Part shown: piece by piece, positions 16,134 through 31,697 of the stretch
Numbering within the stretch: the stretch's first letter is position 1
Layout of the letters: every line of letters starts with the position of its first letter
Origin: Planctomycetota bacterium
GTDB taxonomy: Bacteria > Planctomycetota > Phycisphaerae > Phycisphaerales > SM1A02
Length of the DNA stretch: 34,441 nucleotides
Assembly (NCBI GenBank): GCA_016873115.1
Contig: VGYB01000022.1
Span: forward strand, 1-34,441
Reading direction: 5' to 3'
Made by a program: the position numbers and the translations under genes
The notes under the pieces: model-generated
The model's input: the letters and a program-made list of their open reading frames with translations, nothing else
Told to the model about the DNA's origin: nothing
The model's database searches: none

Positions 16134-17807
16134 TCAGGGAGTGCCGCGATCGAGGACGAGTCGCCGCCCGGGCGCGGTCGTCGCGACCTGCTCGAAGCCG
16201 TCGGGCCAACGCACGGTGACCTTCACCGGGCCCTTGCCGGGCAACCCCACATGGGCCTCGGGAGAAAAGGTCGATTGGAACGGCCCGCCGCCAGCGAGCC
16301 AGCGACGCTGCGAAAGCCCATCCTGCTCGACCGTGATCATGGCCCCGACCGCACGATGGTTGCGCGATCCCCCACGCGTGTCGCGCAGACTCACCACCAG
16401 CCAGTCCGCGGTTCCATCATGATCGTTGCGCAGGACGCGGAGCGGACCGTTGAGCTCGCCGATCACCGCATCGAGGTCGCCGTCACCATCCAAATCGCCG
16501 AACACCGCCGTGCGATCGCGATGCGGCGAAACCAGCCACGCGGCATCGCTGCGCAGCGGCGAGAACCGGCTCCCCTTGCGCTCGAGCACAAGCCTCGGTT
16601 GCGCGTAGTCGCTGTCGAAGGTGGCCTTGGTCGCGTTGGGATAGACATGGCCGTTGACGGTGAACAGATCCTCGTCCCCGTCGTGATCGAGGTCGGCAAA
16701 GATCGACGCCCAGCCACAGAGCGAGCGCGATGGTGCACCGGTCCCGTACTGGCTCGAGCGGTCATCCCAGAAGCCGTCGGAACGATTCAGGAAGAGCGTG
16801 TTCGTATCGCTCGAGAAGACCGTGGTGTGCAGGTCGGGCCGGCCGTTGCCATCGACATCGCCGAGGGCGACCCCCATGGTCGCCTGCTCGATGCCCTCGA
16901 GGTTCGTGTTGCACCCCAGACGCCGAGCCCGCTCGGTGAACCGAAAGCCGCCCTCGTTCACGAGCAGGTGATTCCCGCTGGAGTCATTGCCCACGAAGAG
17001 ATCGACGAGCCCATCGCCGGTGAAGTCGCACGCGACCACATTGAGGCCGAACCCAGGGGCCACCCCACCGACACCGCACGCGTCGGTCACCTCGGTGAAA
17101 CGGTCGCCATCATTGCGCAGGACCACATCGCGCATCGGCACGAGGCCCTTCGGACCATTGATGACCGGCTGTCCCTTGAACATCGCCGGCAAGAGCGGCT
17201 TGGTGGGGTCATAGTCGACATAGCGAGCGACATAGAGGTCCAGATCGGAGTCGCCATCGAGGTCCGCCAACGCGCACCCCGTGCTCCAGCCACCGGGTCC
17301 CGCGGCACCCCAAGCGTCGGTGGCATCGACGAAGCGGCCATCGCCACGATTGAGCCAGAGCGCGTTGCGGCCGAAGCCAGCGATGAAGAGATCATCGCGA
17401 CGGTCGCCATCGACATCACCGGCCGCAACGCCGAACGACCAGCCGCGGTGCGTGATGCCGCTCGCTTCGGTGATGTCGGTGAAGCGCCATCCACCGTCGT
17501 TGCGCCAGAGCCGGGCGCCGGGCCCCTTCGCGGGATCGGCGAGCGTGGCCCCGTTGGGCATGAAGAGGTCGAGGTCGCCGTCGTCATCAACATCGATGAG
17601 CGCCAGCCCCCCGCCCTTCACCTCGAGGATCTGCGAACTGGGCTGCGTCCCGCTGGTCATGATGGCCTGGATGCCCGACGAGGCCGTGATGTCGGTGAAA
17701 GAGATCGGCTTGGTGGGCGGTGTTGGCGCGGGTGACTGGATGGCGTGGGCCGGGCACAGCACGCTGCCCGCCACGATCATTCGGGCCGTCAGCGCCTGCG
17801 CCTTCAT
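16134..17807 (-). CDS. Exported FG-GAP beta-propeller protein with C-terminal ASPIC/UnbV domain (CRTAC1 family)
   Basis: The 557-residue protein begins with a Sec signal peptide (likely cleavage after AHA at residue 22). At least seven calcium-binding FG-GAP/VCBS blades follow, for example DVDDDGDLDLF, DVDGDRRDDLF, DLDGDSDLDLY, DFTGDGLVDLF, DVDGNGRPDLHT and DLDHDGDEDLF. Residues about 466-557 are an ASPIC/UnbV domain (NHRAVGAMITVEQDGLSQRR, then VTVRWPDGFEQVATT). The family's biochemical role is not established; propellers of this type usually act as binding scaffolds at the cell surface. ATG 17807 overlaps the stop of the TPR lipoprotein gene by four bases (ATGA), so the two are made together. 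Confidence 0.88.
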   Translation of the reverse strand: MKAQALTARMIVAGSVLCPAHAIQSPAPTPPTKPISFTDITASSGIQAIMTSGTQPSSQILEVKGGGLALIDVDDDGDLDLFMPNGATLADPAKGPGARLWRNDGGWRFTDITEASGITHRGWSFGVAAGDVDGDRRDDLFIAGFGRNALWLNRGDGRFVDATDAWGAAGPGGWSTGCALADLDGDSDLDLYVARYVDYDPTKPLLPAMFKGQPVINGPKGLVPMRDVVLRNDGDRFTEVTDACGVGGVAPGFGLNVVACDFTGDGLVDLFVGNDSSGNHLLVNEGGFRFTERARRLGCNTNLEGIEQATMGVALGDVDGNGRPDLHTTVFSSDTNTLFLNRSDGFWDDRSSQYGTGAPSRSLCGWASIFADLDHDGDEDLFTVNGHVYPNATKATFDSDYAQPRLVLERKGSRFSPLRSDAAWLVSPHRDRTAVFGDLDGDGDLDAVIGELNGPLRVLRNDHDGTADWLVVSLRDTRGGSRNHRAVGAMITVEQDGLSQRRWLAGGGPFQSTFSPEAHVGLPGKGPVKVTVRWPDGFEQVATTAPGRRLVLDRGTP

Positions 17808-18745
17808 GGCTGCGCTCCCTTGGGTGGATCCATGACGCGCCCCATGCGTTCGCGTGCGTTGAGTTCCTCCACGCGCGCGCGGTCGGCCGCCCCGGCATCG
17901 CCAAGACGGTCATAGCAGCGCGCAACCTTGGCCCAGACCTCGTAATGGTCAGGCCACGCTCGCAAGGCTCGCCGATAGAGATCGACCGCGTCCTGCACAC
18001 GGTCCGCACGCAGCGCGAGATCACCCTGACGGGCGAGGATCTTGCCGCGATCGCGGCTGCGCGAGTCCTCCATGCGCTCCGCTTCGGGCAGATACGCCAT
18101 CGCACGCTCAAGTGCGGCCCCCGCGGCGTCGATCTGGTCCTCGTCGATCTCGACCAAGGCAAGGCCGTACCAGGAGTCGCCCGCCGTCGGCACCGTCGCC
18201 ACATGAGAGGCGAATGCACCGCGTGCACCATCGAGATCACCGGCGTAGTAGCGCGCCCAGCCAAGGAAGTGCGACACATGGACATGCTCAGGGAACTGCT
18301 GCGCTCGCAGCGCGGCCTCGATCGCCCCTGCACCCGCCAGGGCCTGCTCGAAGTATGGCACCGCATCGCTGTAGCGCTTCTGCTTGTGCAGGCTCAGGCC
18401 GAGCACGAAGGCCGCACGCGGCTGGTCGGGGTACGCCGACACCAACGCGCGCGCCACGGGCTCGGCCTGTTCGGGATGATTCCGACCGATGAGCTGCAGC
18501 GCCACCCGTGCCTGATCATCGCCCGGAGGCGGTGGTTGCACATCGGCATTCGCGCGATTGAGGGCCTCGACGACCTCCGGCGGAAGTTCTGGCTGTGCGA
18601 TCTTGACCGCTGCGGCTGCCGGATCCCCCGCCTCTGATCCTGAACCGGGCTCGGACCCGGAACGGGGCGGCCGACCCCCGGGGTCACCCGCTGGATCGGA
18701 GCAGCCAGCGATCATGATGACCAGGGCGGTGGGCAGAGCGCGCAT
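17804..18745 (-). CDS. TPR-repeat lipoprotein
   Basis: The 313-residue protein has a short lipoprotein signal (MRALPTALVIMIAGC, Cys15). A Ser/Gly/Pro-rich linker of about 45 residues follows, then TPR-like helical pairs from about 85 to 300: AYPDQPRAAFVLGLSLHKQK, RYSDAVPYFEQALAGAGAIE, FLGWARYYAGDLDGARGAFA and GDLALRADRVQDAVDLYRRA. These pack as a scaffold for protein contacts on the periplasmic face. It is co-translated with the CRTAC1 protein downstream, its probable partner. Upstream, TAGGAT lies 6 bases before the ATG and overlaps an 8-bp hairpin. Confidence 0.82.
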   Translation of the reverse strand: MRALPTALVIMIAGCSDPAGDPGGRPPRSGSEPGSGSEAGDPAAAAVKIAQPELPPEVVEALNRANADVQPPPPGDDQARVALQLIGRNHPEQAEPVARALVSAYPDQPRAAFVLGLSLHKQKRYSDAVPYFEQALAGAGAIEAALRAQQFPEHVHVSHFLGWARYYAGDLDGARGAFASHVATVPTAGDSWYGLALVEIDEDQIDAAGAALERAMAYLPEAERMEDSRSRDRGKILARQGDLALRADRVQDAVDLYRRALRAWPDHYEVWAKVARCYDRLGDAGAADRARVEELNARERMGRVMDPPKGAQP

Positions 18746-18751
18746 GGACTC

Positions 18752-18776
18752 ATCCTACGGAGCAGAAATCCGTAGG
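18752..18776 (-). promoter_or_regulatory. Hairpin overlapping the -10 box or ribosome site of the TPR lipoprotein gene
   Basis: On the minus strand CCTACGGA / TCCGTAGG (18769-18776 and 18754-18761) form a perfect 8-bp inverted repeat with a 7-base loop. TAGGAT (18752-18757), 6 bases before ATG 18745, overlaps its end. If TAGGAT is a -10 box the mRNA is leaderless and the repeat may be an operator. If a leader exists, the hairpin would hide the AGGAT ribosome site. Confidence 0.45.
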
Positions 18777-18877
18777 GTCGACCCGGTTTTTTTGTCCTGA
18801 GACTCCCGTTGCGCTTGCTCCAACGCCTCACCCGTTGAATACTTACGCGGGTTCCCATGACGTCCTTTCATGTGTTA

Positions 18878-18906: not shown

Positions 18907-18975
18907 GTCAGCGTCCGATCCTGTTGTCCCTGCCGTACTCCGAGCAAGGTTCAGGTCCACAGAGAGGTTCGATCG

Positions 18976-20625
18976 ATGCCACGCATGATGCTTCCCACGG
19001 CCACGCTCCTCCTGGTGGTGCCACTCGCGACTGCCCGGGCCATCGACATCCAGCCCAAGGCTGGCGCCCCGCTCGCTGGACTGACTACTGCCCAGTTGGA
19101 GCTCTTCTGGGCCGGGCACGAGGCGTACTCGACGCCGATCACGGTCGCGGGCGGTCTTGGCCCAATCATGAACAAGAGCAACTGCATCAGTTGCCACACC
19201 AATCCGATCGGCGGCTGGGGCAGCATCGCCGTCAATCACTACGGGATCGAGAAGAAGGGCGAGTTCATGCTGCTCCCGGGTGAGACGCAGTCGCTGCTGC
19301 AGACGCTGGCCGTCTCGCCGCTCTGCGCCGAGGTCGTTCCCGAAGACGCCACTGTGTTCATCCAGCGCATCACGAACTCTTCGTTGGCCTTCGGCCTGAT
19401 CGAGGCGATTCCTGATGCGTCGATCGCAGCGAATGCCGACGCGACCGACGCCAACGCCGACGGCATTTCCGGTCGAGTGCACTGGGTCAACCTGCTCGAG
19501 GATCCCACGGGACCGCTTCGCGCCGGTCGGTTCGGCTGGAAGGCCCAGGTCGCGAGCACGCTGAGTTTCTCGGGCGATGCTGCGCGCAATGAGATGGGCC
19601 TGACGAACGCCCTCGTCCCCGGCGAGAACGCACCGAACGGCAATGCGTCGATTCTCACGGAGTGCGATTCCGTTGCGGACCCCGAAGACGCCCCCGACTC
19701 CGAGGGCTTCCGCTTCATCGACCGCGTGACGCATTTCCAGCGCTACTTGGCCCAACCGCCGCAGACGCCCAAGAGCGGCATGACCGGAGAAGCGGTGTTC
19801 AACGCGATCGGCTGCAACGCGTGCCACATTCGCGACTGGACGACCTCGAACTCACCCTCGCTCGAGGACGCGATCCGCAACAAGGCGATCAAGCCGTACA
19901 GCGACTTCCTGCTCCACAACATGGGTGGCTTGGGCGACGGCGTCCAACAGGGTGACGCCGACGAGAGCGAAATGCGCACCCCGGTCTTGTGGAACCTGCG
20001 CACGCGCGACCCGATGCTTCACCATGGTGCCGCGGCTGGCGGCACCTTCGCGACGCGGGTGACCAAGGCCATTGAACTCCACGGTCCGTTCGGCGAGGGC
20101 GCTGCTAGTGCTGCGGCCTTCATGGCACTGGGGGGAACCCAGAAGGCCCAGCTGATCGCCTTCCTGGGCTCACTCGGCAAGCTCGAGTTCGATCTTGATC
20201 CCGACAACCAGGTCGATGCGTTCGACTTCACGCTGTTCCAGCCCTGCTTCGCGAACGGAGCGGCATCACCCGATACCAACTGCGGCGTGGCCGACTTCAA
20301 CCAGGACGGTCTCATCAACATGGTCGATGCCGACGCGTTCATGCAGGCCTACGAAGGTGCTGAGGGCACCGGCGACTGCGACCGGGACGGCCAGATCGAC
20401 CTGATGGAGATCCTCCTGGGGGCACCCGATGCCGACAGTGACTTCATCCCAGACGATTGTGTAGGCTGCCAAGCCGACTTCAACGGCGACGGCCATCGCG
20501 ACGGCGTCGATCTCGGGATCCTGCTCGCCGGTTGGGGAACGGCGGCGGCCGATGCGAACGGCGATGGCGTGACCGACGGGGTCGACCTCGGCATCCTGCT
20601 TGCCGGCTGGGGCACCTGCGGCTGA
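18976..20625 (+). CDS. Di-haem oxidoreductase (DHOR, putative peroxidase) with C-terminal dockerin-like repeats
   Basis: The protein has 549 residues and starts with a Sec signal (MMLPTATLLLVVPLATARA). It has two c-type haem sites, CISCH near 70-74 and CNACH near 280-284, in the DHOR setting WAGHEAYSTPITVAGGLGPI and MRTPVLWNLRTRDPMLHHG. This family (once DUF1111) is related to MauG/CcpA-type di-haem peroxidases. From about 405 on are EF-hand/dockerin-like segments. The last 50 residues hold two copies of a D-x-N-G-D-G-x-x-D-G-x-D-L-G-I-L-L-A-G-W-G unit, ending WGTCG. That tail recurs in the next gene. ATG 18976 was chosen over the open frame back to 18835, which crosses the promoter and has no signal peptide. 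The substrate is unknown. Confidence 0.88.
   Translation: MPRMMLPTATLLLVVPLATARAIDIQPKAGAPLAGLTTAQLELFWAGHEAYSTPITVAGGLGPIMNKSNCISCHTNPIGGWGSIAVNHYGIEKKGEFMLLPGETQSLLQTLAVSPLCAEVVPEDATVFIQRITNSSLAFGLIEAIPDASIAANADATDANADGISGRVHWVNLLEDPTGPLRAGRFGWKAQVASTLSFSGDAARNEMGLTNALVPGENAPNGNASILTECDSVADPEDAPDSEGFRFIDRVTHFQRYLAQPPQTPKSGMTGEAVFNAIGCNACHIRDWTTSNSPSLEDAIRNKAIKPYSDFLLHNMGGLGDGVQQGDADESEMRTPVLWNLRTRDPMLHHGAAAGGTFATRVTKAIELHGPFGEGAASAAAFMALGGTQKAQLIAFLGSLGKLEFDLDPDNQVDAFDFTLFQPCFANGAASPDTNCGVADFNQDGLINMVDADAFMQAYEGAEGTGDCDRDGQIDLMEILLGAPDADSDFIPDDCVGCQADFNGDGHRDGVDLGILLAGWGTAAADANGDGVTDGVDLGILLAGWGTCG
20476..20622 (+). repeat. Two dockerin-like tail repeats in the DHOR gene
   Basis: Two tandem coding units (DFNGDGHRDGVDLGILLAGW and DANGDGVTDGVDLGILLAGW) are joined by GTAAA and end with GTCG. 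Calcium-ligand Asp/Asn spacing (D-x-N-x-D-G-x-x-D) is kept in both. The same design ends the neighbouring FG-GAP protein. Confidence 0.85.
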
Positions 20626-20689: not shown

Positions 20690-23176
20690 ATGAAGACCCG
20701 CAGTGTCATCCTCGCCGCTCTCGTGACCGCTTCGGCGAACGCACAGTGGGCGACCTTTCAGAAGCAGACCTCGACCCGCATGGTCGCGAGTGCTTCGCTC
20801 ATCGTGAACACGAACCTGGAGCACGATTTCGCGGTCGGCGACTTCGATCGGGACGGCGACCTTGACCTGGTGTGCATGCGCAAGTTCCCCGGCTCGGTGC
20901 AGGGCGGCTTCCGCGACATCCTGTTCATGAACGAGAGCGGTGTGCTCGTGGACCGAACCGTCGAGTTCGGCTCGGCCGCGGACGCTGTCGGTTCGCAGGG
21001 CATGCTCGATCCCACCAACGACCGCGATGTCGAGGCATTCGATGTTGACAACGACAACTGGCTCGACCTGATCACCGTGACCACCATGAGCGATCATGTC
21101 AGCACGATGCTCGGCCAACCCCGCGTCTACCGGAATCTGGGCAACAATGCGCAGGGCCAGTGGCTGGGCTTCCGCTTCGAAGACAACCGCATTCCCACCC
21201 TGTTCAGCAAGACCGGCGTGGCGGCGAACCCGCGCGCCTGCGACGCCGCGGTGGCCGACTACACCGGCGACGGCTATGTCGACATCTACTTCGTCGACTA
21301 CGACACGCCCGAAACCGCAGGCCAAACGATCTGCTACGACCTGAACTCCGACGGCGACACCTCGGACTCGGGCGAGTGCCAGCAGTCCCCTTCCGAAGAC
21401 TCCGCGAAGGACTACGACAACAAGTTGCTCATCAATCAGGGAGCCTCGAATCCCGGCTACTTCACCGACTCCTTGACCACGCGGATGACCGCGTCGCAGC
21501 TCGCCAGTGAGTTCGGCAACATGTGCGAGCCCGGCGACATCAATCTGGACGGGCGCATGGATGTGGTCCGCGTGAATACGCTGACCTCGGGCCAGGATGT
21601 CGCGATCTTCTACCCCAACGCGACCGGCACGGCCTGGACCAAGGACATCGTCTACCCAGGCCTCGCCCCGTACGGTCTGGGCGTGAATGACCTCAACGGC
21701 GATGGCAAGCTTGACTTCATCGTGGCCGACGACGGCCAGGACCGCTACTGCCTGAACTCGGGCAACGGCACCGATGGCCTGGCCAACTTCGTCACCTATG
21801 TGATCTCGGGCAGCCCCTCGGAATTCGGCAACTCCATCGCGATTGCCGACCTCAACAACGACGGACGCAAGGACGTGATCGTGACGGATGTCGACAGCGA
21901 CCTTGGTCCCTTCTGCCCGAGCAGCGGCCGAACGACCAAGTTCTACCGGAACACAGGTTCCGACGGCGCACTGCTCGTCAACGAAGCGAGCACCGTGCCG
22001 TCCACCGAGCAAACCGGTTGGACGGATGCTGCGCTCTTTGACATCAATGGTGACGGCTGGCGCGACATCGTGTCGGGTACCTGCGGCGGGATCAACGTCT
22101 ACATGAACACGCCCCCGATCAACATGAGCTGGTCGATCGTGGGTGACGTACCGTCGACCGTGCCCCCGGGTCAAGCAACCGTGCTGACGGCCAACGCATC
22201 GATCCTGGGCGGTGGATCCATCGTGTCGGGCAGTGCGAAACTGTTCAAGCGCATCAACAACGGCGCGTGGTCGGAGTCAGCACTGACGCCGGTTTCGTCA
22301 ACGCAGTTCCTCGTGAACCTGCCGGGCCTCGACTGCGGTCAGAGCCTTGATTGGTACATCTCAGCGCAGTTGTCGAACACCGGGACCGCGACCTGGCCCC
22401 TGCCGGCTGGCGGCGCGACGGCGCCGTTCGGGCTCGATCCGGTTTCAGGCACGGAGGTCATCTATTCGACCGAGTTCGAGAACGGCACCGAGGGTTGGAC
22501 GATCGAGAACACCTCGGTCACCTTTGGCGCATGGGAACTCGGTGACCCGATCGGCACGAACAGCGGATCGACGCCCGTTCAGCCTGAGGTCGATTACTCG
22601 TCGACCGGCGTGAACTGCTGGTTCACCGGTCAGGGAGCGGCCGGAGGCACGGCTTCTGCCGGCGACCTCGACGGTGGCCCCACGACACTCGTCTCGCCGA
22701 CCTTCACCAACAGCGGTAACGATGTGACCATCTCGTACGCACGGTGGTTCGCCTGCGTCGAACCCACCGCTTCAGAGGTTGACTCGCTGACCGTCGAGGT
22801 TCGAGTGGATGGAGGCACGTGGCGTAACTTCGAGACCTTCACGTCGAACACGGGCGCCTGGATCCTGCGGTCGGCCAACCTGAGCTCCGCAATGGCCCCG
22901 GGCAACACGCTGCAGATCCGCTTCGTCGCGCGTGACAACCCGAACAACTCCACCACCGAAGCCGCGATCGATTCGGTTCGTATTGAACGTGTGATCTGCA
23001 CGCAGACCCCTGCCTGCGTCGGTGACCTCGATGACAGCGGTGTGGTCGATGGTGCCGACCTTGGCGTACTGCTCGGCCAGTGGGGCACTGCGGCGGCAGC
23101 GGACCTCGATGGCAACGGTCTGGTCGACGGTGCCGACCTGGGCATCATGCTCGGTGCTTGGGGCGCTTGCCCCTGA
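20690..23176 (+). CDS. Secreted acidic FG-GAP/VCBS protein with C-terminal dockerin-like repeats
   Basis: The 828-residue protein has a Sec signal (MKTRSVILAALVTASANA, cleavage after residue 18) and is rich in Asp. FG-GAP blades are clear over the first 500 residues: DFDRDGDLDLV, DVDNDNWLDLI, DYTGDGYVDIY, DINLDGRMDVV, DLNGDGKLDFI, DLNNDGRKDVI and DINGDGWRDIV. Two beta-sandwich-like regions follow: a choice-of-anchor-like strand set, then EFENGTEGWTIENTSVTFGA through the Cys pairs near ARWFACVE, typical of carbohydrate- or anchor-type modules. The last about 50 residues are two dockerin-like units ending WGACP. AGGA lies 7 bases before ATG 20690. It is 64 bp after the DHOR gene and probably in the same transcript. 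Confidence 0.85.
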   Translation: MKTRSVILAALVTASANAQWATFQKQTSTRMVASASLIVNTNLEHDFAVGDFDRDGDLDLVCMRKFPGSVQGGFRDILFMNESGVLVDRTVEFGSAADAVGSQGMLDPTNDRDVEAFDVDNDNWLDLITVTTMSDHVSTMLGQPRVYRNLGNNAQGQWLGFRFEDNRIPTLFSKTGVAANPRACDAAVADYTGDGYVDIYFVDYDTPETAGQTICYDLNSDGDTSDSGECQQSPSEDSAKDYDNKLLINQGASNPGYFTDSLTTRMTASQLASEFGNMCEPGDINLDGRMDVVRVNTLTSGQDVAIFYPNATGTAWTKDIVYPGLAPYGLGVNDLNGDGKLDFIVADDGQDRYCLNSGNGTDGLANFVTYVISGSPSEFGNSIAIADLNNDGRKDVIVTDVDSDLGPFCPSSGRTTKFYRNTGSDGALLVNEASTVPSTEQTGWTDAALFDINGDGWRDIVSGTCGGINVYMNTPPINMSWSIVGDVPSTVPPGQATVLTANASILGGGSIVSGSAKLFKRINNGAWSESALTPVSSTQFLVNLPGLDCGQSLDWYISAQLSNTGTATWPLPAGGATAPFGLDPVSGTEVIYSTEFENGTEGWTIENTSVTFGAWELGDPIGTNSGSTPVQPEVDYSSTGVNCWFTGQGAAGGTASAGDLDGGPTTLVSPTFTNSGNDVTISYARWFACVEPTASEVDSLTVEVRVDGGTWRNFETFTSNTGAWILRSANLSSAMAPGNTLQIRFVARDNPNNSTTEAAIDSVRIERVICTQTPACVGDLDDSGVVDGADLGVLLGQWGTAAAADLDGNGLVDGADLGIMLGAWGACP
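23024..23173 (+). repeat. Two dockerin-like tail repeats in the FG-GAP gene
   Basis: Two coding units (DLDDSGVVDGADLGVLLGQW and DLDGNGLVDGADLGIMLGAW) are separated by GTAAAA and end GACP. They align unit for unit with the tail of the DHOR protein, although the two proteins are otherwise unrelated. Confidence 0.85.
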
Positions 23177-23239: not shown

Positions 23240-25123
23240 TCAGCGACCCGGTGCGCGGATCTTGATCGTCCTGCCCGTGCCGTCCACCACGATGCGTGAC
23301 TCCTCAAGCGCGCCGCTTCCCGCGGGCCACCTGACGCTGATGACGGTCTTGGACTGTCCTTCGGGAAGACCAATCGTGAACGCGGGGTCGCACGCACTCA
23401 GGTAACTGCGGGCGCCACTGACGATGCTCGCGGCCGTCGGAGCAGGCACCGACGCGAAGGGCGCCACGGTCACAAGTGCACCGATCCCCTGCGGATTGCC
23501 TGGCGGTCCCTCGAGCACGATGCGCAGCCAGCGGTCGTGCGATGGGAGGTCGTTGCGCAGCAGCATCGGCGCGCCGCCGGCCTGCGTCAGGGCCAGATCA
23601 AGGTCACCGTCGCCGTCGATGTCGGCGGTCGCCAGACCACGACCCACCACCGGTCGCGCAAGATCACCGATCATGTGGGCGGGAAGTTCGCGCCACAGCG
23701 GGCTCGGCGCGCCGGACCCTGCATTCAGGAAGAGCTGCCCGCGCTGGCGCCAGCTCTGGCTTGGCTGCACCCGTGCGATGCGCTCTTCGATGTGGCCGTT
23801 GGCCTGCACGAGATCGGCATCGCCATCGAGGTCCATGTCGGCCATGACCAGTCCAAAGGTGAGGAACGCCCGCGACGCCGGACCAAGACCCTCGATGATG
23901 GCGTCGTCGCTGAAGGCCATCGTGGAACCACGCTCGACATACAGCGAACTCATCTCGTTGGCGAAATTGCCGATGGCGATCGCCCATTCCTGCGGACGCA
24001 ACCACGCCGTGTCGATGCCCATGGCACCAGTCGCGCTGCCGTTGCGATCAAAGGCGATGCCACTCGCGCCCCCCACCTCGACGAAGCTCGCGCGGCCCGG
24101 CGATCCCTCGTTGCGGAAGAGGAAGTTGGCCACGGTGTCGTTGGCGATGGCCACATCGACCCGGCCATCGTCGTTCCAGTCGCCGAGCACCACGCCGAGC
24201 GCCTTGCCCACGGGCTTGCCGGTGCTGGCGTTGGCGACCGTGAAACCGCTGACGGCCGTGGCATCCACGAGGCCCGCCGCGCCATCGTTGCGCAGGTAGG
24301 TCAGGTCGACGCCCTCGAACCCCGTGGGCGAGCCGTACGCGCGGCCGAGGCCGGTGAGCCGGTAGTCAACCGCCAGGTCGATCTCGCGCGACCAGCGCAC
24401 ATAGTTGCAGACCAGGAGGTCGAGGTCGCCGTCCTGGTCAGCGTCGAACATCGCCGCGCTCGTACCCCAGCGTGAGGCGCTGGGGACCTTGAGGCGATCC
24501 GTGGCATCCTCGAAACGCGGCGCGCCGCCCGGCTCGGTCCGGTTGAGATAGACGGCATTGCGGCCGACCGCGGTCACGAACACGTCGGTTCGGCCATCGC
24601 CATCGAGATCGCCGGTCGCCATGCCCATGCCGTAGCGCGGCCCCTCGAGCCCGCTGCCCGTGGTCGCGTCGCGAAACTGGCCGCGACCATCGTTGGTCCA
24701 CAGCCGCACGCTGTCGTGACCGGGCTCCGGTGCACTGGCGAATGGCTCTCCCTGCCAGCGGCAACCGTCGATCAAGACCATGTCCTGATCGCCGTCGCCG
24801 TCGACATCCAGGAATCCCACACCACCACCCATCGTCTCTGGCAGCAGGGACTCGCCGGTCGCGCCGGTCGTATGCGTGAAGTCGATGCCTGCGGCCTTGG
24901 CGACATCGGTGAAGGGCACCGGGGCGAGCGGCTGTTCGACCACGCGCGGCAGCGCTGGCGTGACGGGCGTTGGATCGGGTGTGCGAGCCGGAACCGGCTT
25001 GCGTGTGAGCAGCCAGACGCCTGTGCCGATCACACCGAGCGCGACGATGGCGACGAGCGAATGACGAGTGGCGCGACCGATGCTGCCATCGTCAGGTTGG
25101 GGGCCGGGCGCGGAGTCGGGCAT
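23240..25123 (-). CDS. Membrane-anchored FG-GAP/ASPIC-UnbV protein (CRTAC1 family)
   Basis: The 627-residue protein has an N-terminal helix at about 23-40 (SLVAIVALGVIGTGVWLL) that acts as anchor or uncleaved signal, then a Pro/Thr linker. The family opening is FTDVAKAAGIDFTHTTGATG, and FG-GAP blades follow: DVDGDGDQDMV, DLDGDGRTDVF, DADQDGDLDLL, DWNDDGRVDVA, DMDLDGDADLV and DIDGDGDLDLAL. An ASPIC/UnbV domain occupies about 529-627 (GIGALVTVAPFAS, then VISVRWPAGSGA). The role is unknown; it is probably a surface or periplasmic scaffold. The gene lies 85 bp after the pentahaem cytochrome gene. That gap holds its own promoter candidate and two hairpins, so it may be expressed both with and apart from the cytochrome. 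Confidence 0.88.
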   Translation of the reverse strand: MPDSAPGPQPDDGSIGRATRHSLVAIVALGVIGTGVWLLTRKPVPARTPDPTPVTPALPRVVEQPLAPVPFTDVAKAAGIDFTHTTGATGESLLPETMGGGVGFLDVDGDGDQDMVLIDGCRWQGEPFASAPEPGHDSVRLWTNDGRGQFRDATTGSGLEGPRYGMGMATGDLDGDGRTDVFVTAVGRNAVYLNRTEPGGAPRFEDATDRLKVPSASRWGTSAAMFDADQDGDLDLLVCNYVRWSREIDLAVDYRLTGLGRAYGSPTGFEGVDLTYLRNDGAAGLVDATAVSGFTVANASTGKPVGKALGVVLGDWNDDGRVDVAIANDTVANFLFRNEGSPGRASFVEVGGASGIAFDRNGSATGAMGIDTAWLRPQEWAIAIGNFANEMSSLYVERGSTMAFSDDAIIEGLGPASRAFLTFGLVMADMDLDGDADLVQANGHIEERIARVQPSQSWRQRGQLFLNAGSGAPSPLWRELPAHMIGDLARPVVGRGLATADIDGDGDLDLALTQAGGAPMLLRNDLPSHDRWLRIVLEGPPGNPQGIGALVTVAPFASVPAPTAASIVSGARSYLSACDPAFTIGLPEGQSKTVISVRWPAGSGALEESRIVVDGTGRTIKIRAPGR

Positions 25124-25208: not shown

Positions 25209-28124
25209 TCACTCCCGGCGCGAGCGGCTGAGCGACTTGCCCGGAGTCGGATCGGCGATCGAAGCCTCGAAGCGTCCCTCCCGCTGCAGGTCGTAGATCA
25301 CGATCGGCTCCGCAGCGTGGTTCGCCGCCGGGTAGCGCGCACGGGCGGCGGTGATGGCGAAGTCGCGAGCGTTGTCATCGAGCTTGTAACGGGCGTGCTC
25401 GGTTCGGGCACGCTCGGCGAGGGCGGAGTCCCCAAGCTCGGTTCCCACCTGCGAGAGGACATACCACGCGCTGGCACTCTCAGGGTCGAGCGTGAGCGCC
25501 GCATCGAGGTTGGCCCGTGCGCTGGCGAGCAGGTCACGCGCCTTCCCAGGGTCGGACGCAGAACAAGAACGCGCCCACTCGTACTGCACTTGGGCCAGGT
25601 CCACCAGCAGGCGGTCGTCGCGGCTGAAGTCGAAGCCCCGATCGATCGCCAGCGGGAAGGCGCTGGCCTTGACGGCCTCCATGTTGCGCACGGCGGCCTC
25701 GAAGTTGCCGTTCTGGCGATCGACCTGTGCGCTGAACCACGCAATCGACCATGGGTACGCGGGTGTGGAGCCCTGTCCAGCACGGCCGAGCGCCGCCACC
25801 GCATCGTCAAGGCGCCCCTCCTTCAGATAGGCCCGGGCCAGACCGAGCGCGCCCTCGCCACGACCGAGTTCCTCGACCTTGAGGAAGGCGACCTCGGCAC
25901 CGCGAAGATCGCCCTTCTGGCTGCCACGATTGCCTTGGCGGAAGAGGCCGATCGCGTAGTCGTACCAGCGCTGCCACTCGGGGAAGGTGGGCGACGGGGC
26001 AGCCGGCATGGCGCCAGCAGGCAGCGGCTCCCTTGGACCGCCGGCAGCCTCGCCCGACGGGCGGTCGATGGCTTCCACGGTAGTCATTGGTTCGCTGGCC
26101 AAGGGCAGCGTGATGGAGTCCGTCGCGAGCGTCAGCACCGGCAGGGTGTTGGGATCGCTTCCCGGGTAGACGAAGTGCATGTAGGTCGTGTCGAACTTGC
26201 GATAGCGGAGCGCCACCTCGATCGTGACCGGGGCGGCCAGGTCGCCGGGCAGCGTCAGACCGAAGTGGGTCACATCCCCGGCCCCGGGCGGGATCTGGTT
26301 GTTGTAAAGCGGGACGAAGATGTCCTGCGCATTGCGGCGATCGATGCGGTTGCCCATGCGGTCAAGCATGAAGGAGTTCAGGAACTTGCTCCACGGATCG
26401 ACGGCGCGCTCCCCGTCGACGCCCCCGCTTCGGCCGATGATCCGGTCACCCGAGCGCACGGTGACATCGAGCCAGACCTCGTTGCTGTCCGCGGTGCCCT
26501 GCGTGAACTCGTGGCCGAGCTTGAGGGTTCGGGTGACCACCTCGACCAGCAGCGATTCGCCGGGCGAGACGGCAGGCCGCATGGGATCGAGGGGCGCCTC
26601 CAGCGGGGCATCGATGTCAGTGCCCCGACGGATCCCGAAGAGGTCAACGCGCATGGTGCCCTCGAGGAACGCCTCGCACTCGGCCTGCACCGTGTCGGCG
26701 CCCGCGAGGCCCGACAGCAGCGGCGTGGCTGGGTTGGCGCTGGCGAAGCCGTGGTCGAGGATCGCCAGCCGTCCGTCGCGAACCTTGGCGCCGAAGTCAT
26801 CACTCGGTCGCGCCGGCATGTGGCAACCATTGCAGTTCGACTCTGCCTTGGCCGGGTAGTACCAGCTCTCGACGCCGTGACCGCTCACGCCCGAGAGCCG
26901 GAACGAGTCATAGTGATTCTGGCCGCGCAACCAGCGATAGTCGTTCACGGCCGCAGGCAGGTTGACCTTGTGGCAGGTGCCGCAGAACTCGGTGCTCTGG
27001 TGGACTGCCGGCTTGAGGAAGGTCTGCTTGTGGAAGGCAGGCTTGGCCTTGATGAGCTGGCGATTCACCCACTGCAAGAAGGGGTTCTCGCTGAAGGTGA
27101 AGGGATAGTGCTGCGATTCCTCGATGGTGTAGTCCGCGTTGCCGCGCGGCGAATTCACCGCGACGATCGAGTGGCAGGATGTGCACGTGATGCTGGCGGC
27201 ACCCAGCGGATCCTTCGAGACGTCGTAGTTCGGATCATCGAAGCGCGCGTGCTCAAAGGCACCTGAGAAGAAGGGCACCGGGTCGTGGCAGCCGGCGCAG
27301 AAGCGCGCATCCTGCACGGACCCCTCGCGGGCATGCGCCTCGCGGCGCGTCTCGCGGACGCTGAAGGCGTACATCGGGTTGTTGAAGCTGCTGGCGGCGT
27401 GGACTGAATGGGCCCACGAGTCATAGGTGTCCTGATGGCACTCGAGGCAGTACTCGTTCATCATCAGGCTCTCGGCGGAGATGAAACCGCCGGACGCCGT
27501 GCGCGCAAGGCTGGGCTCGAAGTAGTCGGCGTTGCGTGGGCCGATCGTGGACCACGGCCGTGCATCGGCACCGTGCAGCGCGACCATGGCCACGGCGAAG
27601 GCCGCCGCGACGGCTCCCCACCACACGCCGACCTGCCACCTGATGCGCCGGCCCGCGAGCCGGTGCAGCACATAGAGCCAGATCGCAGCAATGGGCAGGA
27701 CCACATGCAGCCAGTAGACGATGCGCCGCGAGTCGGGACTGCGCAAACCCACATCACGGCCGCCGATCTCGACATTCGTCAAGAGGAATCCCGTGACCAG
27801 CACCCCGACCGAGGCCCACAAGAGGATCCACCCCGCACGCACGGCGCTGCGGTTGGGCAGGTCATGCGCATTGCGCAGGTGGACGGCCGCGAACACGATG
27901 AAGGGCAGCGTGAACGCAAGACCCAAAAGCAGATGGCCACCGAACATCCACTGGTAGAACTGATTCTGCAGCGACTGGCCCGACGCCCACTCCGCCACCG
28001 TGATGCCCGACAGGTAGACGCTGTTGACGACCAGGATCGCAAAGAGCCCAAGCACGACCGACAGGACGCGCGCCAGGCGTGGTGGAACGGGCTGCTTGAG
28101 CGGCTTTCCGCCGGGACCGGCCAT
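25209..28124 (-). CDS. Membrane-bound pentahaem cytochrome c with TPR-like C-terminal domain
   Basis: The 971-residue protein has three parts. Residues 1-186 hold about five membrane helices. His64, His82, His140 and His154 sit on helices 2 and 4, as in b-type haem four-helix bundles. The outer domain carries five CxxCH haem c sites: CLECH (226-230), CAGCH (276-280), CTSCH (314-318), CGTCH (381-385) and CNGCH (431-435). This resembles cytochrome c554-type proteins. A beta-rich region then a TPR-like tail (about 710-930: GALGLARAYLKEGRLDDAVA, SAWYVLSQVGTELGDSALAE) complete it. ATG 28124 is chosen over the longer frame to 28160, because a TAGACT box lies 7 bases upstream. Likely job: moving electrons from the quinone pool outward. 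Partners and acceptor are unknown. Confidence 0.87.
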   Translation of the reverse strand: MAGPGGKPLKQPVPPRLARVLSVVLGLFAILVVNSVYLSGITVAEWASGQSLQNQFYQWMFGGHLLLGLAFTLPFIVFAAVHLRNAHDLPNRSAVRAGWILLWASVGVLVTGFLLTNVEIGGRDVGLRSPDSRRIVYWLHVVLPIAAIWLYVLHRLAGRRIRWQVGVWWGAVAAAFAVAMVALHGADARPWSTIGPRNADYFEPSLARTASGGFISAESLMMNEYCLECHQDTYDSWAHSVHAASSFNNPMYAFSVRETRREAHAREGSVQDARFCAGCHDPVPFFSGAFEHARFDDPNYDVSKDPLGAASITCTSCHSIVAVNSPRGNADYTIEESQHYPFTFSENPFLQWVNRQLIKAKPAFHKQTFLKPAVHQSTEFCGTCHKVNLPAAVNDYRWLRGQNHYDSFRLSGVSGHGVESWYYPAKAESNCNGCHMPARPSDDFGAKVRDGRLAILDHGFASANPATPLLSGLAGADTVQAECEAFLEGTMRVDLFGIRRGTDIDAPLEAPLDPMRPAVSPGESLLVEVVTRTLKLGHEFTQGTADSNEVWLDVTVRSGDRIIGRSGGVDGERAVDPWSKFLNSFMLDRMGNRIDRRNAQDIFVPLYNNQIPPGAGDVTHFGLTLPGDLAAPVTIEVALRYRKFDTTYMHFVYPGSDPNTLPVLTLATDSITLPLASEPMTTVEAIDRPSGEAAGGPREPLPAGAMPAAPSPTFPEWQRWYDYAIGLFRQGNRGSQKGDLRGAEVAFLKVEELGRGEGALGLARAYLKEGRLDDAVAALGRAGQGSTPAYPWSIAWFSAQVDRQNGNFEAAVRNMEAVKASAFPLAIDRGFDFSRDDRLLVDLAQVQYEWARSCSASDPGKARDLLASARANLDAALTLDPESASAWYVLSQVGTELGDSALAERARTEHARYKLDDNARDFAITAARARYPAANHAAEPIVIYDLQREGRFEASIADPTPGKSLSRSRRE

Positions 28125-28131
28125 GGCACAA

Positions 28132-28137: not shown

Positions 28138-28250
28138 GGTGCGCCGCCTCCGATCAGCACATCAGGGCATGGCCAGCAGGTCGGGAGTCGATGCTGCCGG
28201 CTGGCGACCCACCGCGGCTGGTCGAGCGTGGAGCGGGTGACCCGTGGGCC

Positions 28251-31200
28251 TCAGCGCCCGCCTTGGAGACGCGTGTTGAAGCGCTCATCCAAGGCTTGCG
28301 CGGTCGGCGAGCGGACCGAGCCCCGCATGGGCTGCGGATCAAGCGTCTCGCCATCCTTGGTGAAGAGGTCCATGTCCTTGCACCAGCCATCCAGTTCGAG
28401 CACCCAGCAGCGAACGCGATCGGCCCGTTCCGGGGGCGCCTCGAAGGCCAGCTGCAGTTCCTCGCCGCCGGCGATGATCGCGCAGGCATCGTCCTGCGTG
28501 GCCGTGAGCGGCAGGCATTCTCCCAGTGCGGTGTACTGCCCCACCTGCACGCGGCAGTCCCACAGGGGCAACGCGCGGGCATCGTCGTAGTGCGGCAGGA
28601 ATTGCGGTCCGGTGGAGCGGCGCGCGTACCCGCGACGGACGACCACCGAGGAGCGTGGGTTGCACGCCATCGGACTGACCGGGGCTGGCTGGGCCTCGAT
28701 GACGGCCATCCGATCCCAGTAGATCTGGTGATTGGTCGACAGCCGCAGTGCGGTGGTCCCTGCGGGCAACTCGGGCAACGGCAGCATCGCGCGGCGCGGC
28801 ATGCCGGCGGGATAGCCGAACTGCTCGGCGACCATGACCCACGCTCCATCTGCGCCGCGGGCTTCGAGCGACGGTGCGCGGAAGGCTGCACCCGCCTGCC
28901 ACGCCGCGAACATCGTCTGGCAGTACGGGTACTCGACCCATCCATCCATGACGAGCCAGGCATCCTTGAGGGACGCCAGATCAAGACCGAACTCAAGCTC
29001 GAACGAATGATCTGCCGTCAAGCGTCCAATCAGACGATGGTCGATCGGACCGGGATCAAGCGCAACGCGATCGGCACGGGTCACGGCCTCAAGCGCTGTC
29101 TGCGTGCGCGTGGCGTCGACTCCACCCTGTGCGCGATCGGATGCCTCCTTCCCACCGTGACGGTTCATCACTGCCGTCGGGAGGTGTTCCGTCCGCCAGA
29201 AGATCGGTGCCCCCGTCGGCTGCGGTCCGTTGATCCCCATGCGTTCATCGACTGCCATGGACCAGCCAGCGGGAAGGTCGTAGGCCAGCAGCCGAGCGCC
29301 ATCGATCCAGCAGGCCTCTTCCATGGGTTCGGCGAGCTTGAGGCGATAGACGCCACGGTCTGCAACCAGCGAACCTGGTCCAAGCAGGACATGCTCCCAC
29401 GGCCGCGGCGGCGCGTAGACGCCGGGCTCGATGAGATAACCAAGTCCACCCACGCCAAGGCAATCCGTGAGGAAGGCATGCTCGCGACCATTCCAGCCAA
29501 AGATCACGGGACAACTGCTGATCTGTCGCTGTGTCTCCACCAGCGTGCGTCGCGAGCCAGCCATGAGCCAGAGCTCGCTCTGCGTCACGCCGTCGCTCCA
29601 ATCGATGGCGAGCGCATCGACATGCGGTGCCGGGCCAAGGCCGATCGAGACTGGCTGCAAGCTCTGGCCCGGGCCCGAACCGATGCGCCAGGTCGTGGTG
29701 CTCGACCACTCGTTGCCGATGCGCGCAATGAGCCTCGTGCCGATGCCGCTGGCGTTGGAGCGCATGCTTTGCGCCGGATCGATGCGGCCGCGAGGCTCGA
29801 CGGCCGCGAAACCGCCACGACCCGAGCCGGGCCCAAAGATGATCGGCGGTCCGCCGGGCTGCGTCGCGAGCATGCTCGGCCCCGCTTCGGGCTTCAGGTT
29901 CACGACCGCCCAGGCCGTCGCAGGCTTGGGAGCACGCTCGCTCCAGACCTGCTGACCGGAGGGATCCATCCCGATGAGCGCTGAGCCCTCGCCGCAGAGC
30001 ACCTCGTGGTGCAGGTCGCCGTTGAGATCAGCAAGCGTGAAGAGGCTGCTTGTTCCGGCAGCCGTGCCGGGTTCGAGCGAGCCCTGCGCGAGCACCTCCC
30101 ACGGTCCGGACCAGTTCGCACCGCGCTCGGGCGTCGTCGGCGCCAGCACGACGAGCGAACCGCCGATCGTGGGCGCTGTTCCCGGCGCCTGACGCAGCAT
30201 CACCAGCGGCGTACCGTCGATCGAGCGCTCGGTGCAGGCGATCCACTGCGCCGCGCGGGACTCGATCGCACTGCATCGCGGCTGTCGCGTCCACGACCAG
30301 AGGCGATCATTGCACCAGACCGTGCAGCCTTGTGGCCCCGCGAGCAAGAGGTCGACATCGCGGTCGCCGTCGACATCGCCCAGGGCGATCTGCGTCGCCG
30401 GCTTGGCCGCATCGCCTTGCAGTCGATCGGTGATCTCGCGCATGGGCGCGCCGTCGATGCCCGCGAAGAGCCGCAGCGATCCGGCGCCATCAAGGAACGC
30501 AAGATCAAGGTCACCATCGTGATCGAGGTCGGCCATCACACCATCGCGTGCCGCAGGGATCGTGGTCAGGCCGAGTGCCTCCGTCCGATCCTGCCAACCA
30601 TCGGCGCTCTGCATCCACGCACGCACGCCAGCAGTGCCCAGAGAGACCAGATCCACGCGGCCATCGCTGTCGAGATCGCCAGCCAGCACACCGAGCACGC
30701 TCGGTGCCGCTGCCAAAGGATGTGCGCCATCATGGCTGAAGCCCTCGGCTGTCGAGCGCAGGATCGCGTTGGGGCGCTCGCCCTTCAGGGCGCCGGGAAT
30801 GATCAGATCCAGCCCACCATCACCGTCCAGATCGGCTGCGCACACGCTCACCCCACCCGAGTCACTCCAGTCGAGCTCGGTGTGGGAGCCTGCAAGCGTG
30901 ATCGGGGCTGGTGCGGTCAGCACCGGACCGCTGGCGGGCTCAGGCATCGAGGGTGGCGGCAGGATGCACATGCCAAGACGACCCATGCGGGTGTACTTGA
31001 ACTCGGCAAGCGTGCTGCGCGGGTTCATGGCCAGGCGCTCGAAGGTCTGCATCGCAGCATCGGCGGCTGCCTGGTCACCCGTGCGCGAGGCCATGCGCTG
31101 AATGCCGAGCTGCGCGCTGCGGAGGAACGGGTCGAGCTCCGCGGCGCGGCGATACCACGCGAGCGCATCCTGTTCGGCCCCGGTCAGCTCGAGGCACTGC

Positions 31201-31697
31201 CCGACGTAGAAGCTCGCATGCGGATCGCCCGGTACGGCCTCCGCACAGCGGCGGAAGTGCATCAGTGCCTGGTCCGGTTTCCCGAGAAAGAGCTCGCACA
31301 GTCCCACACAGTAGGTCGCAGTGCCCCAGATCTCGACGCCGGGCGCACTGTATGCACGAAGGATCGAGCGGAACTCCTCGATCGCGCGCTCCTGTGATCC
31401 CTCGACGGACTGGTTCATCAGCGCAATCGCGGCGTTGGTCAGGCCCCATCGGTTGCCGTGGACCTGTGCGCTGCCTTGGAACTGCAGGCGTGCGGCCTCG
31501 AACTCGAACTGCCCCATCAGGCCGATGCCGTGATTGAGCGCACCGATCTGGACGGCACTCAGTGCGGGTTCGTCGGTGGCGGGCTTCGAGCAGCCACTCA
31601 TGGCCACCGCGATCGCGAGCAGCGCGCCGGCCGCTCGTGCGGCGCGGATCGAGGCGAGCGCTGCCAGCGATGCGATGGCACCCCCCGCTGCGCTCAC
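28251..31697 (-). CDS. Large lipoprotein with TPR, FG-GAP and ASPIC/UnbV domains
   Basis: The 1148-residue protein has a lipoprotein signal (RAAGALLAIAVAMSGC, Cys36). TPR-like helices occupy about 55-225 (ALMHFRRCAEAVPGDPHASF, DALAWYRRAAELDPFLRSAQ). FG-GAP blades run from about 285 to 575 (DLDGDGGLDLI, DLDSDGRVDLV, DLDHDGDLDLA, DVDGDRDVDLL). An ASPIC/UnbV domain spans about 646-725 (NASGIGTRLIARIGNEWSS, DALAIDWSDGVTQSELWLM). The last about 420 residues, from FGWNGREHAFLTDCLG onward, I do not recognise. The start is GTG 31697, overlapping the nitrilase stop as GTGA; no ATG lies before the signal sequence. It combines in one chain the TPR and CRTAC1 modules that are separate genes at 16134-18745. 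Confidence 0.85.
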   Translation of the reverse strand: MSAAGGAIASLAALASIRAARAAGALLAIAVAMSGCSKPATDEPALSAVQIGALNHGIGLMGQFEFEAARLQFQGSAQVHGNRWGLTNAAIALMNQSVEGSQERAIEEFRSILRAYSAPGVEIWGTATYCVGLCELFLGKPDQALMHFRRCAEAVPGDPHASFYVGQCLELTGAEQDALAWYRRAAELDPFLRSAQLGIQRMASRTGDQAAADAAMQTFERLAMNPRSTLAEFKYTRMGRLGMCILPPPSMPEPASGPVLTAPAPITLAGSHTELDWSDSGGVSVCAADLDGDGGLDLIIPGALKGERPNAILRSTAEGFSHDGAHPLAAAPSVLGVLAGDLDSDGRVDLVSLGTAGVRAWMQSADGWQDRTEALGLTTIPAARDGVMADLDHDGDLDLAFLDGAGSLRLFAGIDGAPMREITDRLQGDAAKPATQIALGDVDGDRDVDLLLAGPQGCTVWCNDRLWSWTRQPRCSAIESRAAQWIACTERSIDGTPLVMLRQAPGTAPTIGGSLVVLAPTTPERGANWSGPWEVLAQGSLEPGTAAGTSSLFTLADLNGDLHHEVLCGEGSALIGMDPSGQQVWSERAPKPATAWAVVNLKPEAGPSMLATQPGGPPIIFGPGSGRGGFAAVEPRGRIDPAQSMRSNASGIGTRLIARIGNEWSSTTTWRIGSGPGQSLQPVSIGLGPAPHVDALAIDWSDGVTQSELWLMAGSRRTLVETQRQISSCPVIFGWNGREHAFLTDCLGVGGLGYLIEPGVYAPPRPWEHVLLGPGSLVADRGVYRLKLAEPMEEACWIDGARLLAYDLPAGWSMAVDERMGINGPQPTGAPIFWRTEHLPTAVMNRHGGKEASDRAQGGVDATRTQTALEAVTRADRVALDPGPIDHRLIGRLTADHSFELEFGLDLASLKDAWLVMDGWVEYPYCQTMFAAWQAGAAFRAPSLEARGADGAWVMVAEQFGYPAGMPRRAMLPLPELPAGTTALRLSTNHQIYWDRMAVIEAQPAPVSPMACNPRSSVVVRRGYARRSTGPQFLPHYDDARALPLWDCRVQVGQYTALGECLPLTATQDDACAIIAGGEELQLAFEAPPERADRVRCWVLELDGWCKDMDLFTKDGETLDPQPMRGSVRSPTAQALDERFNTRLQGGR

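What the first reader, a model, noticed from the sequence alone, without database searches (positions are those of the whole stretch)
16134..31697. Clustered exported redox and beta-propeller proteins: a candidate undescribed surface electron-transfer system
Within 15.5 kb lie a five-haem membrane cytochrome, a di-haem peroxidase-like protein, three ASPIC/UnbV FG-GAP proteins, a secreted FG-GAP protein and a TPR lipoprotein. TPR and CRTAC1 modules appear as separate coupled genes (16134-18745) and fused in one lipoprotein (28251-31697). The cytochrome itself carries a TPR tail. This suggests TPR-mediated assembly of a complex in which propellers scaffold or cap haem proteins. The families are known; this combination as one system is my inference.
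Basis: partly seen in the sequence, partly recalled or inferred. Interest (0 to 1): 0.72.

Follow-up and report, generated by a model that had tools for sequence, protein, structure and literature searches.

The report
Haem cytochrome with dedicated propeller partner
In many planctomycete-like bacteria a membrane electron-transfer protein with five c-type haems is encoded beside the same propeller-shaped CRTAC1 protein, which points to an undescribed respiratory complex and gives this propeller family a testable role.

Summary
Module A: amidase, TPR-CRTAC1 lipoprotein, cytochrome, CRTAC1-b. Its core, cytochrome plus CRTAC1-b, is tight. Of 246 phylum genomes, 37 have a top-tier cytochrome; 32 have CRTAC1-b downstream, 3 lie at or near contig ends, 2 keep both genes unlinked. 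In the class all 17 CRTAC1-b orthologues lie downstream of the cytochrome, 16 as next gene. The pair also occurs in records titled Acidobacteria and Verrucomicrobia. Besides five CXXCH the cytochrome has four invariant membrane histidines (90 of 90), so probably two b haems; its haem domain resembles pentahaem c552. Module B: TPR lipoprotein and CRTAC1-a beside di-haem DHOR and an FG-GAP protein, the last two fused in 5 of 12 loci read. It accompanies module A in 11 of 20 close-relative loci and 0 of 17 others with both flanks. Surface electron transfer is not supported: no MtrB/PioB match, probable ACIII and oxidase present. Best reading: a quinone-linked b2c5 cytochrome with a dedicated propeller subunit; direction and substrate unknown.

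The parts
16134..17807 (-). CRTAC1-a (module B): secreted FG-GAP protein with ASPIC/UnbV domain
   Evidence: FG-GAP_3 2.4e-39 with seven stretches, UnbV_ASPIC 3.5e-11 over cut-off; signal-peptide-like N-terminus read from the sequence
17804..18745 (-). TPR lipoprotein (module B), lipobox IAGC read by eye, 4-bp overlap with CRTAC1-a
   Evidence: TPR_16 5.5e-17; sequence
18985..20625 (+). Di-haem oxidoreductase (DHOR family), two CXXCH, dockerin-type stretch (module B)
   Evidence: DHOR 3.1e-39, Dockerin_1 4.9e-9; start chosen by codon score
20690..23176 (+). Secreted FG-GAP protein whose C-terminus resembles that of DHOR (module B); fused to DHOR in other genomes
   Evidence: FG-GAP_3 1.9e-28; shared C-terminus; fusions in L167, L215-L218
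23240..25123 (-). CRTAC1-b (module A): one N-terminal hydrophobic anchor, FG-GAP propeller, ASPIC domain; dedicated partner of the cytochrome
   Evidence: Pfam; anchor by hydropathy; profile matches mouse CRTAC1 9etn E 1.4e-31; orthologues track the cytochrome
25209..28124 (-). Membrane cytochrome (module A): five TM helices with four invariant His, five CXXCH, beta domain, TPR tail; GTG start at 28160 possible
   Evidence: Conservation; model pLDDT 89, pTM 0.87; pentahaem c552 5ze8 Z 15.9
28251..31697 (-). TPR-CRTAC1-like lipoprotein (module A), lipobox MSGC read by eye, long conserved C-terminal beta region
   Evidence: Model: propeller matches 9etn Z 32.4; within four genes upstream of the cytochrome in 38 of 90 loci
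31694..32674 (-). CN-hydrolase (amidase-like), 4-bp overlap with the lipoprotein gene; usual upstream neighbour in close relatives
   Evidence: CN_hydrolase 1.8e-38; 24 of 30 loci with room

Best explanation
The core is a two-protein respiratory unit. The cytochrome sits in the inner membrane. Its five helices probably hold two b haems that exchange electrons with quinone. A bis-histidine pentahaem wire on the outer face of that membrane carries the electrons, and a beta domain and TPR tail provide docking. CRTAC1-b, anchored in the same membrane by one helix, is its dedicated subunit and most likely forms the docking face or cap through which a soluble redox partner reaches the haem wire. In the window's relatives a TPR-CRTAC1 lipoprotein is added. 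The likely direction is quinol to haem wire to a periplasmic or surface acceptor, which in some relatives could be the adjacent di-haem DHOR. Shown: gene content, conservation of ligands, tight co-inheritance of cytochrome and CRTAC1-b, and the fold match of the haem domain. Inferred: haem b, bis-histidine ligation, quinone reactivity, physical contact, direction, and partner.
For: Adjacency: 59 of 69 named-record loci with at least 500 bp downstream have a same-strand CRTAC1 as the next gene; 18 of the 59 overlap by 4 bp and 12 by more. Class sample: 17 of 17 CRTAC1-b orthologues (326 bits or more; the next hit is 256) lie downstream of the cytochrome on the same strand, 16 as next gene and one (G084) after two other genes. 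Phylum sample: 37 genomes with a top-tier match to the haem-domain profile (686 bits or more); 32 have CRTAC1-b downstream, 3 (G339, G376, G364) lie at or near a contig end with the orthologue, or in G364 a fragment, on another contig, and 2 (G220, G280) keep both unlinked. Distance matrices of 66 pairs correlate at r=0.83; the maximum of 2000 shuffles was 0.39 (shared descent contributes). Ligands: membrane His 76, 94, 152, 166 in 90 of 90; five CXXCH in 90 of 90; distal candidates His 254, 377, 470 in 90, His 387 in 89, His 416 in 86 of 90. In the model the membrane His fall on helices 55-86 and 130-156 (numbering 12 lower). Haem domain: 5ze8 Z 15.9, 345 aligned. A second cytochrome subfamily has a CRTAC1 of 250 bits or more downstream in 17 of 30.
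Against: No Pfam or PDB family confirms the membrane domain as a b-type cytochrome; Ni_hydr_CYTB and DUF4405 appear weakly in 2 of 25 members each. No complex was modelled. Foldseek's 50 listed rows held no cytochrome; c552 appeared only in the second look. One genome (G278) has a CRTAC1-b-like hit (413.6 bits, in a 1611-aa protein) but no cytochrome hit. Of the 69 named loci, 10 lack an immediate CRTAC1: in L116, L124 and L135 it comes after other called genes, in L153 a truncated one is seen at the contig end, and L131, L136, L146, L149, L156 and L160 show none downstream (no genes were called downstream in L131, and only 2.2 kb exist in L136 and L149). In the second subfamily 13 of 30 lack a counted CRTAC1, 9 of them from family f80; two others, G257 and G322, are split over contigs and show it beside the other fragment. 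Two of the five haem motifs were part of the search patterns, so their conservation is partly by selection.
Confidence: 0.58

Rival explanations
1. Electrons flow inward: a periplasmic or secreted dehydrogenase hands electrons through the pentahaem domain and b haems to quinone, and CRTAC1-b docks the dehydrogenase.
For: Same anatomy; the genome has a probable ACIII and a haem-copper oxidase to use quinol.
Against: I recognised no periplasmic dehydrogenase by eye among the neighbour clusters found in four or more loci; those clusters were not searched against profiles.
Confidence: 0.22
2. CRTAC1-b is an assembly or quality-control factor for the cytochrome and not part of the mature complex.
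For: Co-inheritance and frequent gene overlap; TPR proteins often act in assembly (general knowledge).
Against: CRTAC1-b has its own membrane anchor (hydropathy) and many conserved columns; this does not exclude the rival.
Confidence: 0.2
3. Surface or mineral-directed electron transfer, possibly with nanowire-like pentahaem cytochromes.
For: The haem domain resembles T. tepidum c552; PMC11976967 (passages read) reports that ExtKL-like cytochromes of cable bacteria resemble c552 and discusses a tie to archaeal cytochrome nanowires. DHOR bears a dockerin-type stretch.
Against: The pentahaem domain is tied to five membrane helices; no MtrB/PioB match in the genome (other barrels not tested); 3 of 91 loci hold another gene with two or more haem motifs besides DHOR; probable ACIII and an oxidase present. 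Isolate names such as Baikal-deep, ALOHA and M_surface_10 suggest lake or ocean water for several relatives.
Confidence: 0.1
4. All genes of the 15.5-kb interval form one complex with DHOR as terminal peroxidase.
For: Both modules are side by side in the window and in 11 of 20 loci of its kind with both flanks; DHOR co-occurs with the cytochrome in 16 of 18 class genomes; L154 has DHOR and the FG-GAP protein directly upstream of the cytochrome.
Against: 0 of 17 other loci with both flanks have DHOR or the FG-GAP protein; no cytochrome lies in any of 12 DHOR stretches read away from it; 13 of 29 class genomes with DHOR lack the cytochrome.
Confidence: 0.12

Closest known systems
Pentahaem cytochrome family PHC: T. 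tepidum c552 (5ze8), Geobacter ExtKL, MccSep (9wt8)
   Same: Five CXXCH with haem domain plus beta domain; fold match to 5ze8 Z 15.9 over 345 residues; weak sequence matches to 5ze8 (1.3e-4) and 9wt8 (0.004) and to NCBIfam ExtKL (29.9 bits against cut-off 250).
   Different: Here the domain is fused to a five-helix membrane part with four invariant His and to a TPR tail, and is paired with CRTAC1-b.
CbcL of Geobacter (inner-membrane quinol dehydrogenase)
   Same: Works-like comparison only: a membrane part with probable b haems joined to a multihaem c domain. CbcL as quinol dehydrogenase: PMC7096707, passages read; its b-c fusion is recalled.
   Different: Sequence relation not tested; different haem domain family and no known CRTAC1 partner (both recalled).
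CRTAC1 / ASPIC-UnbV propeller family (mouse CRTAC1, 9etn)
   Same: CRTAC1-b profile matches 9etn at 1.4e-31.
   Different: Bacterial, membrane-anchored, and tied to a cytochrome; biochemical role not known.
Hydrazine synthase homologue clusters (PMC12758564, abstract and sections 7 and 8 read)
   Same: There too a CRTAC1-family gene lies between or beside haem-protein genes, and a propeller is fused to a di-haem peroxidase-like domain, as FG-GAP and DHOR are fused in 5 of 12 loci here.
   Different: No hydrazine synthase chain was among the 60 rows listed of 106 for the DHOR profile; the FG-GAP propeller is a different repeat type (inferred).

Membership tests
Pentahaem PHC / c552 / ExtKL family | Five CXXCH haem sites in the characteristic fold | tested here: met
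   Five CXXCH in 90 of 90; 5ze8 Z 15.9, rmsd 3.5, 345 of 385 residues
Pentahaem PHC / c552 / ExtKL family | Score above the curated ExtKL model | tested here: not met
   29.9 bits against cut-off 250: related fold, not ExtKL itself
Di-haem b quinone-reactive membrane cytochrome (CbcL-like) | Two pairs of conserved membrane histidines | tested here: met
   His 76, 94, 152, 166 in 90 of 90, on helices 2 and 4 of the model
Di-haem b quinone-reactive membrane cytochrome (CbcL-like) | Recognisable cytochrome b family profile | tested here: inconclusive
   Ni_hydr_CYTB and DUF4405 each in 2 of 25 members, weakly; no convincing PDB match
Di-haem b quinone-reactive membrane cytochrome (CbcL-like) | Quinol oxidation | not testable with these tools
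   needs purified protein
CRTAC1 / ASPIC-UnbV | FG-GAP propeller plus ASPIC domain above Pfam cut-off | tested here: met
   P0001 and P0005 over cut-off; P0007 below cut-off but with the CRTAC1 fold
Porin-cytochrome surface conduit (MtrAB/PioAB type) | MtrB/PioB barrel in the genome | tested here: not met
   No PF11854 match in a genome 95.9% complete; other barrel types not tested
DHOR family (putative di-haem peroxidase) | PF06537 above cut-off and two CXXCH | tested here: met
   135.2 bits against cut-off 22, profile positions 211-499 of 499; two CXXCH
Hydrazine synthase | Sequence match of the di-haem part to hydrazine synthase chains | tested here: inconclusive
   Not among the 60 rows listed of 106, mostly dockerin and calmodulin matches

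The most novel reading that the evidence does not exclude
A new class of respiratory complex, b2c5 cytochrome plus CRTAC1 propeller, spread over several phyla, in which the propeller forms the docking or substrate chamber for a pentahaem wire. Alongside it is a second, independent propeller plus di-haem enzyme (FG-GAP-DHOR), built on the same plan as the beta-gamma fusion of hydrazine synthase.
Probability: 0.3. Interest if true: 0.8.

Novelty: new variant of a known kind. Interest (0 to 1): 0.6.

Why it matters
CRTAC1-type propellers occur in many bacteria (63 of 198 genomes of this class) without an assigned role that I know of, and animals carry one too. A near one-to-one tie to a probable quinone-linked cytochrome gives a concrete handle: delete or purify one and look at the other. 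If the complex is real, it adds an electron-transfer unit to the respiratory chains of widespread planctomycetes and relatives. The fusion of FG-GAP propeller and di-haem enzyme is a second testable case of propellers paired with haem enzymes.

Tried and rejected
One conserved 15.5-kb system: rejected, because modules A and B part company. One search counted DHOR and the FG-GAP protein only downstream on the opposite strand (11 of 21 and 11 of 24); one search recounted them in either orientation (11 of 20, both genes), with L154 as an exception outside the room limits.

CRTAC1 proteins in general sit beside haem proteins: rejected in this sample. 2 of 20 CRTAC1 loci against 1 of 20 shifted controls have any haem-motif gene, and 2 against 0 have one with two or more motifs. 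Both hits coincide with DHOR matches, and one is the FG-GAP-DHOR fusion itself. I chose the 20 by hand from rows far enough into a contig. The gene caller was trained on one ORF per locus and called as few as 0 to 3 genes in some 12-kb stretches, so sensitivity is limited.

Metal-enzyme role of CRTAC1-b: looked for conserved His/Cys clusters. Only one His (444) and no Cys reaches 95% conservation.

Third, shorter group of cytochrome relatives: in the phylum sample 2 of 30 have a counted CRTAC1, and both are fragments of second-subfamily genes. That count is not fair to them, since only CRTAC1 rows of 250 bits or more were entered; in the class sample 5 of 7 shorter relatives have an ASPIC gene directly downstream, scoring 256 bits or less to CRTAC1-b.

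Literature: among the papers listed none describes this cytochrome-CRTAC1 pair as far as titles and abstract starts show; only PMC12758564, PMC7096707 and PMC11976967 were opened. The library lacks most subscription journals. A recalled link of UnbV to redox genes in enediyne clusters could not be checked (no papers). Baquero et al. 2023 was not held and is known here only through PMC11976967.

Genome-wide haem-motif scan: 233 pattern matches against 83 in the reversed-pattern control. Only 100 places were listed, so it could not rule out other multihaem proteins.

Weak points in my counts. Fisher values ignore phylogeny. The mirror-tree correlation includes shared descent. Loci L093, L107, L108, L109 and L125 were dropped from most counts as duplicates of unnamed-genome loci (equal contig lengths; L108 stayed); one search also dropped L094, L096 and L106. 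The 90-row alignment kept only genes of 850 aa or more with 600 bits or more. One search read DHOR loci from 12 of the 29 genomes with a match. Phylum names come from record titles, some of which look misassigned.


Full report
What is there. The window is one whole 34.4-kb contig of a 2.36-Mb, 95.9% complete genome. Its closest records in the named collection (86-91% identity in the cytochrome) are titled Phycisphaerae or Planctomycetota MAGs or uncultured bacterium. Reading along the minus strand from 32674: an amidase-like CN-hydrolase overlaps by 4 bp a TPR plus CRTAC1-like lipoprotein (28251-31697). Then come the cytochrome (25209-28124) and CRTAC1-b (23240-25123). On the plus strand lie the di-haem DHOR (18985-20625), with a dockerin-type stretch, and an FG-GAP protein (20690-23176) with a similar C-terminus. 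Beyond them, on the minus strand, the TPR lipoprotein (17804-18745) and CRTAC1-a (16134-17807) overlap by 4 bp. Two ASPIC domains pass Pfam's cut-off and the third does not, but its model has the CRTAC1 fold (Z 32.4).

The cytochrome. Ninety sequences keep five CXXCH motifs and four membrane histidines without exception (His 76, 94, 152, 166). Two of the motifs were part of the search patterns, so they are partly conserved by selection. Five further histidines that could be distal ligands are kept in 86 to 90 of 90. The model (pLDDT 89, pTM 0.87) puts the four membrane histidines on helices 2 and 4. This arrangement would hold two b haems; that is inference, since no profile confirms the membrane part. 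Residues 216-673 of the model match the pentahaem c552 of Thermochromatium tepidum (Z 15.9, rmsd 3.5, 345 aligned); Foldseek's own 50 listed rows held no cytochrome. PMC11976967 (passages read) reports that ExtKL-like pentahaem cytochromes of cable bacteria resemble this c552. A TPR tail follows and is conserved.

Neighbourhood test. In the class, 30 of 198 genomes have some match to the cytochrome at E up to 0.001; I count 18 with a long one, of which G098's is a fragment. All 17 CRTAC1-b orthologues in the class (326 bits or more; the next hit 256) lie downstream of it on the same strand, 16 as next gene and one, in G084, after two other genes. Among named records, 59 of 69 loci with at least 500 bp downstream have a same-strand CRTAC1 as next gene; 18 of the 59 overlap by 4 bp and 12 by more. 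Of the ten others, three have it after other called genes and one has a truncated copy at the contig end; six show none downstream. The pair is seen in records titled Acidobacteria (L151, L152), Thermoanaerobaculia (L127) and Verrucomicrobia (L157, L163); in the Latescibacterota record L148 the contig ends too soon.

Phylum sample. 37 of 246 genomes have a top-tier match to the haem-domain profile (686 bits or more). In 32 the CRTAC1-b hit is downstream, 801 to 1414 bases from the end of the profiled domain, a space that the TPR tail largely fills. Three lie at or near a contig end, and in G220 and G280 both genes are kept but unlinked; in G220 they are 552 kb apart on one contig. G278 has a CRTAC1-b-like domain in a 1611-aa protein without a cytochrome hit. 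A second subfamily (276-413 bits) has a CRTAC1 of 250 bits or more downstream in 17 of 30, and two more when split contigs are considered. For a third, shorter group the phylum count is not informative, because low-scoring CRTAC1 rows were not entered; in the class 5 of 7 such relatives have an ASPIC gene directly downstream. Distances of 66 pairs correlate at 0.83.

Two modules. In 38 of 90 loci analysed (72 have at least 3.5 kb upstream) the TPR-CRTAC1 lipoprotein lies within four genes upstream of the cytochrome. Of these 38, the amidase is present in 24 of 30 with room and a CRTAC1 downstream in 32 of 32 with room. With both flanks available, DHOR and the FG-GAP protein are present in 11 of 20 such loci and in 0 of 17 loci without the lipoprotein; L154, with less room, has both directly upstream of the cytochrome without the lipoprotein. 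Twelve DHOR loci away from the cytochrome were read, from 12 of the 29 class genomes with a DHOR match. All 12 have the FG-GAP protein, 5 as one fused ORF and 7 as neighbours. Nine have a CRTAC1-like ORF within the stretch and four the TPR lipoprotein. So DHOR and the FG-GAP protein form their own module, and the two modules meet in some relatives.

What it is not. A general rule that CRTAC1 accompanies haem proteins fails: 2 of 20 other CRTAC1 loci against 0 of 20 controls have a gene with two or more haem motifs (limited sensitivity). A surface conduit of the MtrB/PioB type was not found, and 3 of 91 loci contain another gene with two or more haem motifs besides DHOR. The genome encodes what reads as an ACIII operon with a haem-copper oxidase a few kilobases away. 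An aerobic chain is therefore likely.

How it most likely works. Quinol is oxidised at the probable b haems, electrons pass to the pentahaem domain, and CRTAC1-b, anchored beside it, forms the docking face or cap for a periplasmic partner. The gene pairing, ligand conservation and haem-domain fold are shown; the rest is inferred. Inward flow of electrons and a pure assembly role for CRTAC1-b remain open.

Known and new. The parts belong to known families. The fusion of a pentahaem domain with a probable b-type membrane part and a TPR tail, and its tie to a CRTAC1 protein, were not seen in the listings, from an open-access library that lacks most subscription journals. The nearest published parallel is a CRTAC1 gene between hydrazine-synthase homologue genes (PMC12758564, abstract and sections 7 and 8 read). 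I rate it a new variant of a known kind, interest 0.6.

Noticed in passing
L082:4237-5898 (+) and 2303-4135 (+): Beside a shorter relative of the cytochrome lies a 4Fe-4S membrane protein that also ends in TPR repeats (Pfam; NapH-like by eye), and a second five-haem gene: TPR tails recur on redox membrane proteins.
   Followed up: partly
L073:2168-5301, also L116 and L135: Two same-strand genes lie between the cytochrome and CRTAC1-b in a few relatives; in L073 they read as a MoxR-like ATPase and a VWA protein (by eye, no profile search).
   Followed up: no
L118 and eight other loci: An ArgR-like regulator gene (by eye) recurs directly upstream of the cytochrome in five loci and two genes downstream in four.
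   Followed up: no
L207:6622-11457 (+): A 1611-aa protein with a CRTAC1-b-like domain in a genome without a cytochrome hit, followed by another FG-GAP gene.
   Followed up: no
L166:8186-10033 (-), contig C31 of the same genome: The fourth CRTAC1 gene of the genome stands beside what reads as succinyl-CoA synthetase (by eye), with no haem-motif gene called in the 14.7-kb stretch.
   Followed up: partly
window 2298-16008: The left part holds ordinary genes: ribosomal protein L35, two Lpt-like permeases, a sigma-54 response regulator (Pfam), MurC/MurB/Ddl-like genes and GreA (Pfam); the others by eye.
   Followed up: no
window 28251-31697, residues about 720-1148: A strongly conserved C-terminal beta region of the TPR-CRTAC1 lipoprotein (for example W920, E922, Y923, P924, Y925 in all 33 rows) that the fold search barely tested.
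   Followed up: partly
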